A DNA stretch of 64,000 nt. Source: Methanosarcinales archaeon Methan_01. Its GTDB lineage: Archaea > Halobacteriota > Methanosarcinia > Methanotrichales > Methanotrichaceae. Positions 45,569-47,255 of the stretch are shown here, piece after piece. The position numbers were made by a program, and so were the translations under genes. Below the pieces are notes generated by a model. The model searched no databases, was not told where the DNA came from, and worked only from the letters and a program-made list of their open reading frames with translations. Location: NCBI GenBank assembly GCA_001602645.1, contig LUYE01000036.1, forward strand, positions 62,001 to 126,000. Direction: 5' to 3'. The number at the start of each line of letters is the position of its first letter. Positions within the stretch are counted from its first letter, which is position 1.

Positions 45569-45656
45569 GCAAGGTCGCCCATTTCATTCGAATACTTGCA
45601 ACACTGCCGCGGGTTGCGTCGTCGCAATTTCGCATGAAAACCCACGGAAATCCAAT

Positions 45657-46907
45657 TCAACCTGATCGCCCTCTGCTATCACTTTTCGTTACAACATAGC
45701 CTGCCCTAACGATGCAATCAATCATCTCTTGGATCGGCATTTCAATGGATGAAGGCGAAACTATGGTTTTTCTGCGCGTGTTCTTCTTATCTTCATCTTC
45801 CTGATACATTTCTTGATTTATGAGGAGATGATGAAGAATGCAGAGGACCTTTCTTGCCAGGGCAACTGCTGCTACTTTAGATCCCTTTTTGGCTTGAATC
45901 CTCAAGAAGAATCTCTTTAACTTGGATTTCTTGGTTCTGGATATGGCATAGGCGATCTGGATCAGCATTCTTCGAATATGCTTGGAACCTTGTTTGGTTA
46001 TTCCTCCCAGCACGACCTTTTCTGCTGATTGATAAAGAGAGGGGACAAGCCCGCACCATGCAGCGAGCTTTTCGGAATTCTCAAAATCAGTGTAGTCACC
46101 GATTTCTGCGAGAATAGCAGTCGCAGAAATAAAACCCATCCCAGGTATGGACATGGCGATGGCCAGATCATTTTTGCGTCTCTGGATTCTCGCGCTAATC
46201 TCTCCATCCAATTCGTTTATCCTCTCCTGAATTGATCTCATCAAGCATAGAGATCCACGAATTAAGATAATCTGTGAGATCTCCAGATGACTTTTGATCG
46301 CTTCTTTGATCTGATCTGCCTTTTTCTTGAGTCGACTAGAGGGAATTCCTTCAACAATCTCGTCGATGTCTTTTCCTTCTAGAATGCTGTTCAAGAGATA
46401 CATCCCGGATTTGCCAAATATATCAGAGACAACTGAGGCAAGCTTGATGCATGCTGAATCAAGAGAATGATGGATCTTGTTCTTTTCCTGGGTCATCTGT
46501 TTGACGTAGCCCTCTCTTGCCCTTGTCAACCTCCTCAGCTCTCTGTCATCTTTGGGAAAGATCCTCGATGGCTCAATCATACCATTGAGACAAAGTTCAG
46601 CGATCCACTCTGAGTCGCTGATGTCGGTCTTCCTTCCAGGGGTGTGCTTGATCTTGTAGGCATTTGCCACTATCAAGTCGATCTTTCCTTCTAAAACAGC
46701 ATGTACGGGATGCCAATAGATTCCAGTTGATTCGATGGCCGCTTGCTCACATCCATTTTCGATAAGCCAATCTCTGAAAGTCAAGAGATCTTCAAGGGTT
46801 GCGCTGAAGCGCCGGATTTCCTTTGTACCGTTTCTAGAAAGAATAGTAGCTATCAGAAACCGTTTATGTACATCTATGCCACAAACCTTATTCATCTGCG
46901 GTTCCAT
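45657..46907 (-). CDS. IS110-family transposase (DEDD recombinase)
   Basis: The protein has 416 residues. The N-terminal DEDD RuvC-like domain shows Asp12 (CGIDVHKRF), Glu59 (AAIESTGIYW), and Asp95/Asp98 (GRKTDISDSEW). The C-terminal Transposase_20 domain has SIPGMGFISATAILAEIGD and the catalytic-Ser region VLGGITKQGSKHIRRML. All frames are intact, so it may be active. IS110 enzymes act with a bridge RNA from the element's non-coding end. GGGG precedes the ATG by six bases. Codon use is more AT-rich than in the neighbouring suf genes. Confidence 0.96.
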   Translation of the reverse strand: MEPQMNKVCGIDVHKRFLIATILSRNGTKEIRRFSATLEDLLTFRDWLIENGCEQAAIESTGIYWHPVHAVLEGKIDLIVANAYKIKHTPGRKTDISDSEWIAELCLNGMIEPSRIFPKDDRELRRLTRAREGYVKQMTQEKNKIHHSLDSACIKLASVVSDIFGKSGMYLLNSILEGKDIDEIVEGIPSSRLKKKADQIKEAIKSHLEISQIILIRGSLCLMRSIQERINELDGEISARIQRRKNDLAIAMSIPGMGFISATAILAEIGDYTDFENSEKLAAWCGLVPSLYQSAEKVVLGGITKQGSKHIRRMLIQIAYAISRTKKSKLKRFFLRIQAKKGSKVAAVALARKVLCILHHLLINQEMYQEDEDKKNTRRKTIVSPSSIEMPIQEMIDCIVRAGYVVTKSDSRGRSG

Positions 46908-46921
46908 GGTCGTCCCCGTCC

Positions 46922-47066
46922 TGATATGGGCGGATAACTTAATCCTCGATGGGTGCTCATTCGCATTCGCGTTCTAACGACGCATTCTTGCATCCGCGGG
47001 ATTTGGCCAGTTTGACTACCGGGGTCTATGCCCCTAAATTGCGGACTGCCTTCACCGCCCATATCA
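46922..47066 (-). ncRNA. Candidate bridge RNA of the IS110 element
   Basis: TGATATGGGCGG (46922-46933) and CCGCCCATATCA (47055-47066) form a perfect 12-base inverted repeat enclosing about 120 bases just upstream of the transposase start, on the transposase strand. Inside are a hairpin GGGGCATAGACCCC and other short stems. Position (non-coding left end) and size fit the bridge RNAs known for IS110-group elements. Assignment is inferred from location and foldability only. Confidence 0.5.
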
Positions 47067-47255
47067 AGCGAATCAATTGCTCAGCAATTATATTAGGTTT
47101 TCATAATTCTTGCATGAGCAATGTGTTCATGTGGGTTTGACTAACTTTGGCGACCTTTCTGCGATAACATAACTTCTCTGTTCAACCGGCGGCCCTTCCA
47201 AAGGGAAGCTCCTCCAAGGGGAAGCCGTTATTAGTGAAGGCGGCGATATCGGTGG

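What the first reader, a model, noticed from the sequence alone, without database searches (positions are those of the whole stretch)
46922..47066. Candidate bridge RNA upstream of the IS110 transposase
A 12-base perfect inverted repeat encloses a foldable 120-base core in the non-coding left end, on the transposase strand. IS110-group bridge RNAs are found in this position and choose target and donor DNA. Archaeal examples are little studied.
Basis: partly seen in the sequence, partly recalled or inferred. Interest (0 to 1): 0.6.

Follow-up and report, generated by a model that had tools for sequence, protein, structure and literature searches.

The report
Archaeal bridge RNA, swapped guide order
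Upstream of this archaeal jumping gene lies a structured guide RNA whose short stretches spell out the DNA site the element inserted into and the element's own end; it belongs to the recently discovered bridge/seek RNAs but combines features that were thought to separate their two known types.

Summary
In detail: a 12-bp perfect inverted repeat (13-pair helix) at 46921-47067, minus strand, encloses a structured core just upstream of an intact IS110-type recombinase (45657-46907). A covariance model built only from other element families hits exactly 46921-47067 (109 bits, E 5e-26); 12 of 27 pairs show compensatory changes. By sequence the RNA is a bridge/seek RNA. One loop carries TAGTCAAA, identical to the left junction, and TCCGCAATTT, whose complement AAATTGCG is the right junction; together they spell TAGTCAAATTGCGG, the edge of a REP-like repeat found unoccupied in related genomes. 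A second loop carries ATGCGAA, identical to the right end. Across 27-39 related elements each match covaries beyond permuted pairings, also within clades (0 of 10,000). Two features differ from IS621. The target guides come in the order published for IS1111 elements (which carry the RNA downstream), whereas here the RNA is upstream as in IS110. And the 5' donor strand is identical to a left-end segment about 20 nt inside the core; no IS621-like right-donor guide was found. Expression, recombinase binding and activity are untested. Verdict: real; new variant of a known kind.

The parts
45628..47138 (-). IS110-family element (each end uncertain by the 3 bases of the shared AAA core)
   Evidence: Left and right ends delimited by copies at different sites; single copy in this genome
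45657..46907 (-). recombinase, 416 aa, DEDD RuvC-like domain + Transposase_20 domain; catalytic Asp/Glu/Asp/Asp and Ser align with those of IS621; Ser followed by Ala (SA) instead of SG
46921..47067 (-). bridge RNA gene (P1 to P1')
   Evidence: covariance model hit 109 bits, E 4.9e-26; compensatory changes in relatives
47055..47067 (-).
46921..46933 (-). P1, 3' strand CCGCCCATATCAG
   Evidence: relatives change GGGCGG/CCGCCC to GGGCAG/CTGCCC on both sides
47036..47045 (-). right target guide, TCCGCAATTT: 5' side of the target loop, complementary to the top strand of core + right target
   Evidence: rc AAATTGCG(GA) = right junction AAATTGCG; best of 150 RNA windows against the right flank, z 7.3; within-clade permutation 0/10000
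47021..47034 (-). hairpin that caps the target loop (GGGG..CCCC)
   Evidence: helix 3, 3 of 5 pairs changed on both sides in relatives
47010..47018 (-). left target guide TAGTCAAAC: 3' side of the target loop, identical to the left junction
   Evidence: 9 of 9 with the left junction; z 13 in a search form free of boundary choice; within-clade 0/10000
46984..46993 (-). 5' strand of the donor loop, ATGCAAGAAT, identical to the left-end inner segment
   Evidence: z 14.0, best RNA window; within-clade 0/10000. Function inferred
46969..46983 (-). hairpin that caps the donor loop (GCGT..ACGC)
   Evidence: helix 4, 100% paired in relatives
46960..46966 (-). left donor guide ATGCGAA: 3' side of the donor loop, identical to the right end of the element
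   Evidence: three variable bases match in 93-100% of elements against 36-56% expected, 0/20000 permutations
47135..47143 (-). left junction TAGTC + AAA core + first element base C
47106..47115 (-). left-end inner segment ATGCAAGAAT, repeated in the donor loop
47096..47104 (-). subterminal inverted repeat, left copy ATGAAAACC
   Evidence: 9 of 9 with right copy; 8-9 of 9 in nearly all relatives
45634..45642 (-). subterminal inverted repeat, right copy GGTTTTCAT
45631..45633 (-). GCG, the 3-base right extension read by the left donor guide
45623..45630 (-). right junction AAA core + right target TTGCG
   Evidence: complement of the right target guide

Best explanation
46921-47067 (minus strand) encodes the bridge (seek) RNA of the IS110-family element around it. 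The RNA folds into a 13-pair basal stem holding two internal loops, each capped by a hairpin. [quoted passage not shown] together they define TAGTC-AAA-TTGCGG. [quoted passage not shown] The recombinase bound to the RNA would exchange strands within the AAA core, so that the element leaves as a circle and enters REP-like repeats that carry this sequence. Shown: structure conservation and covariation of the guides with junctions and ends. Inferred: transcription, binding by the recombinase, strand exchange, and the role of the 5' donor strand.
For: Covariance model built without the window family hits exactly the region, 109 bits, E 4.9e-26; compensatory pairs 12 of 27, 0 of 500 shuffles. Left target guide against left junction z 13-14, right target guide against right flank z 7.3 and best of 150 RNA windows, left donor guide against right end z 9.6, all 0 of 20000 permutations; all four matches survive permutation within clades. 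Unoccupied target repeats TAGTCAAATTGCGGCGGCGCACCCCGCAGC lie in several relatives, and AAGTCAAATTGCGG in the own genome, with unrelated upstream sequence. Recombinase intact. Tandem copies in a relative (L070) show the right end joined to the left end through one AAAC.
Against: No RNA, binding or transposition data. One copy only in this genome, and no orthologous empty site of this very insertion was found. Exact counts of the 13-base target in the family (20) are not cleanly above the reversed-pattern control (12, most in two genomes). In group C only the left half of the target is shared by the six copies; the right flank hardly matches. No IS621-type right donor guide was found.
Confidence: 0.95

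Rival explanations
1. The structure is a translational or transcriptional control element of the recombinase mRNA (5' leader hairpin) and not a guide RNA.
For: It lies in the 5' leader, P1 ends 13 bases before the start codon; earlier work had proposed such a role for the ends of some members (cited in PMC11208160).
Against: Would not predict loop bases that covary with flanking target DNA outside the element and with the far right end.
Confidence: 0.03
2. The inverted repeat is a DNA-level recombinase binding site or terminal repeat, and the similarities of loops and ends are shared ancestry or duplications within the element.
For: Subterminal inverted repeats do exist; part of the match is inside the element (donor loop against left-end segment).
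Against: The 12-bp repeat is internal and its changes are compensatory; target guides match bases that belong to the site before insertion, shown by unoccupied repeats and by CRISPR repeats in group C; covariation persists within clades.
Confidence: 0.02
3. For the donor side only: the identity of the 5' donor strand with the left-end inner segment is not a DNA-pairing guide but reflects another constraint (for example an RNA-RNA or protein contact, or repeated copying between the two).
For: It has the opposite sense (identity instead of complement) and place (about 20 bases from the core) from the IS621 right donor guide (PMC11208160).
Against: Exact, variable, 7-10 base identity kept in distant clades, and within clades, is most simply explained by pairing with a nucleic acid.
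Confidence: 0.35

Closest known systems
IS110-group bridge RNA (IS621; PMC11208160, PMC11208158; ISEc21 seekRNA, PMC11187229)
   Same: RNA upstream of and on the strand of a DEDD/Ser recombinase; two internal loops, target loop first, donor loop second; bipartite target guides overlapping in a short core; left donor guide reads the right end; targets include REP repeats.
   Different: Target guides in reverse order (top-strand complement first); left donor guide on the 3' side of its loop; no right donor guide at the core, instead identity with an inner left-end segment; AAA-like core instead of CT; 9-bp subterminal repeats; recombinase of 416 aa with SA instead of SG.
IS1111-group seekRNA (ISEc11, ISPa11, ISKpn4; PMC11187229)
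   Same: Order of the target guides (top-strand complement 5' of bottom-strand match); subterminal inverted repeats; 3-base extension on the right.
   Different: RNA is upstream, not downstream; left extension about 31 bases with a palindrome instead of 6-7; recombinase longer than the 330-350 aa of IS1111 and outside the IS1111 anchor IS4321 and its neighbours in the tree (100/100).
Sulfolobus ISC1229 (IS110 family, PMC10883916)
   Same: Archaeal IS110-family element with sequence resembling the 3' end of CRISPR repeats in its 3' flank; group C relatives here insert at that very sequence.
   Different: Its RNA and guides were not examined here; no sequence was on hand.

Membership tests
IS110 family (broad) | DEDD RuvC-like domain + Transposase_20 domain with catalytic Ser | tested here: met
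   PF01548, PF02371, NF033542 above cut-offs; alignment with IS621 keeps the acidic residues and Ser
Bridge/seek RNA | structured non-coding RNA in a long non-coding end | tested here: met
Bridge/seek RNA | two short stretches matching opposite strands of the target, overlapping at the insertion point | tested here: met
Bridge/seek RNA | second loop matching the donor (element ends) | tested here: met
   left donor guide against right end; the right donor part is atypical
Bridge/seek RNA | RNA expressed, bound by the recombinase and needed for transposition | not testable with these tools
   needs RNA and protein
IS110 group (IS621/ISEc21 type) | RNA upstream of the recombinase gene | tested here: met
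IS110 group (IS621/ISEc21 type) | bottom-strand match 5' of the top-strand complement (PMC11187229) | tested here: not met
   order is reversed in the window and its relatives
IS110 group (IS621/ISEc21 type) | right donor guide complementary to the top strand at the core | tested here: not met
   no such window found
IS1111 group | subterminal inverted repeats, 11-13 bp as a rule, with 7 and 3 base extensions | tested here: inconclusive
   9-bp repeats and 3-base right extension present, left extension much longer
IS1111 group | RNA downstream of the recombinase gene | tested here: not met
IS1111 group | recombinase of 330-350 aa grouping with IS1111 members | tested here: not met
   416 aa; separated from IS4321 and neighbours at 100/100; place of IS621 in that tree is unsure, partial sequences and long branches

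The most novel reading that the evidence does not exclude
A third type of bridge RNA system in archaea: upstream RNA with IS1111-ordered target guides and a donor loop that recognises both element ends through the bottom strand, the left end by a segment set back behind a palindrome, instead of the IS621 right donor guide at the core.
Probability: 0.45. Interest if true: 0.7.

Novelty: new variant of a known kind. Interest (0 to 1): 0.55.

Why it matters
The order of the target guides and the side on which the RNA lies were the two traits used to tell IS110 from IS1111 systems, with the suggestion that the mechanisms differ. This archaeal clade uncouples them, and its loops look like circular permutations of the IS621 loops, so it gives a direct test of which parts of the RNA geometry are essential. 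It supplies a covariance model, many natural guide/target pairs, and a recombinase clade from methanogens for programmable recombination, and it indicates that such RNAs steer elements into REP-like repeats and, in one group, into CRISPR repeats.

Tried and rejected
Rfam scan: no meaningful hit. First reading that the left-junction match was a donor guide was dropped when unoccupied repeats and CRISPR repeats showed the bases belong to the target. An orthologous empty site of this insertion was sought in nine genomes of the genus and not found; only the repeat side matched. The exact 13-base target count was compared with a reversed control and is not cleanly enriched, so it is not used as proof; context of the hits is. 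A complementary right donor guide was searched in all RNA windows and not found. Match of TGCGTC in the donor hairpin with the right flank was judged chance, since that hairpin is conserved. The tree cannot place IS621 (partial sequence, long branch). The paper on IS110 origins PMC11930352 is not held.

Full report
Observation. The strand that matters is the minus strand, that of the recombinase ORF 45657-46907 (Pfam DEDD_Tnp_IS110 and Transposase_20; NCBIfam IS110 family RNA-guided transposase). No dinucleotide shuffle folds as well as the real sequence (z -2.9 and -3.7, 200 shuffles each). The element is present once in its genome. Close relatives are in Methanothrix genomes, so the host is an archaeon of that family.

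Relatives and ends. Searches of the family and class and of named genomes gave some 60 distinct upstream regions. Copies at different sites delimit the element: it begins after a left junction of the form NNNNNAAAC and ends with a subterminal repeat copy, three bases, and AAA-like core. In the window: left junction TAGTC-AAA-C (47143-47135), right end GGTTTTCAT-GCG-AAA-TTGCG (45642-45623). The left and right subterminal repeats match in 8-9 of 9 bases in nearly all elements, found without use of the guides.

Structure. Twenty RNAs from other element families were aligned. RNAalifold gives four helices, a 13-pair basal stem P1, P2, and two hairpins. Of 27 pairs 12 have changes on both sides; 96.9% of cells pair against 90.6% shuffled and 26-42% slid; 0 of 500 shuffles reach the covariation score. 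A covariance model of these twenty finds the window copy at 46921-47067 minus with 109.1 bits, E 4.9e-26, and nothing else in the window or genome. It also finds the RNAs of Methanosarcina, Methanoculleus and ANME-type relatives (55-74 bits) and, weakly, a further group (21-27 bits), but not the IS4321, ISShdy1, ISPsy16 and other bacterial loci tried.

Target loop. Inside P2 the 5' strand is TCCGCAATTT (47045-47036) and the 3' strand TAGTCAAAC (47018-47010). The 3' strand equals the left junction in 9 of 9 bases; over 50 elements the own junction scores far above those of other elements in a test that does not depend on a chosen boundary (7.74 against 6.46 of 9, z 13, 0 of 20000), and in the scan of all RNA columns against all left-end positions the top four cells are this diagonal. 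The 5' strand, reverse-complemented, is AAATTGCGGA, and the right flank reads AAATTGCGAC. Of 150 RNA windows this one is the most complementary to the right flank across 27 elements (z 7.3; 0 of 20000). The two guides overlap in AAA, as the IS621 guides overlap in the core (PMC11208160).

The target. Joined flanks were compared with nine genomes of the genus. Several hold TAGTCAAATTGCGGCGGCGCACCCCGCAGC followed by its palindromic half, unoccupied, and the own genome holds AAGTCAAATTGCGG in the same setting. Most of 20 exact hits in the family share the palindromic repeat on the right and nothing on the left, so the guides spell the edge of a REP-like repeat. The bare count is not cleanly above a reversed-pattern control. 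In group C the guide is CGATTGAAAC and all six copies sit at ATTGAAAC; two sit at the 3' end of repeats of a CRISPR array. This shows that the match belongs to the target, not to the element.

Donor loop. The 3' strand ATGCGAA (46966-46960) equals the right end; the three variable bases agree in 100, 96 and 93% of elements against 56, 38 and 36% expected (0 of 20000). The 5' strand ATGCAAGAAT (46993-46984) equals, in the same sense, the left-end segment 47115-47106 beside the subterminal repeat (7.10 against 5.02 of 8, z 14, the best of all windows). No window is convincingly complementary to the left end next to the core. All four relations hold when guides are permuted only within clades (0 of 10000 each), so shared ancestry does not explain them.

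How it most likely works. By analogy with IS621 (PMC11208158) the RNA binds a recombinase dimer pair, holds target and donor side by side, and strands are exchanged in the core. Tandem copies in a relative show right end and left end joined through a single AAAC, as expected of the circle junction. Steps after the base-pairing are inferred.

Comparison. The published contrast is: IS1111, RNA downstream, top-strand complement before bottom-strand match; IS110, RNA upstream, reverse order (PMC11187229). The window element has the upstream RNA of IS110, the order of IS1111, short subterminal repeats as in IS1111, and a recombinase outside the IS1111 anchors (100/100), with SA where both groups mostly have SG. 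It is a bridge/seek RNA system, but strictly neither of the two described types. Searches of the held literature gave no description of such a combination; subscription papers and preprints were not searchable, and the figures of the six further bridge RNAs in PMC11208160 could not be read, so novelty is provisional.

Noticed in passing
L062 (G015:C1:2744893-2750375), also L175: Two copies of a related IS110 element (group C) are inserted at the 3' end of repeats in one CRISPR array (repeat ...GTTCCACGAAAACAAGGATTGAAAC); four other copies sit at ATTGAAAC outside arrays. Sulfolobus ISC1229 is reported to carry CRISPR-repeat-like Cbp1 sites (PMC10883916).
   Followed up: partly
window 45657-46907 and relatives: Recombinases of this archaeal clade have GLxP....SA where IS621 and IS1111 members have SG; in IS621 the Gly contacts D102.
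   Followed up: partly
window 47096-47142: The left end between core and subterminal repeat holds a short palindrome (CATGA...TCATG, up to 8 bp in relatives) of unknown role.
   Followed up: no
L070, L037: Tandem head-to-tail copies whose junction is right end + core + left end, the sequence expected of the circular form.
   Followed up: partly
G000:C65:3900, L149, and genus genomes (L132-L136): REP-like palindromic repeat AGTCAAATTGCGGCGGCGCACCCCGCAGC...GCTGCGGGG in Methanothrix relatives; the repeat family itself is not characterised.
   Followed up: partly
L042 (Clostridiales bin), L044 (Desulfobacteraceae bin): Archaeal-type copies in bins labelled as bacteria: transfer between domains or mis-binning.
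   Followed up: no
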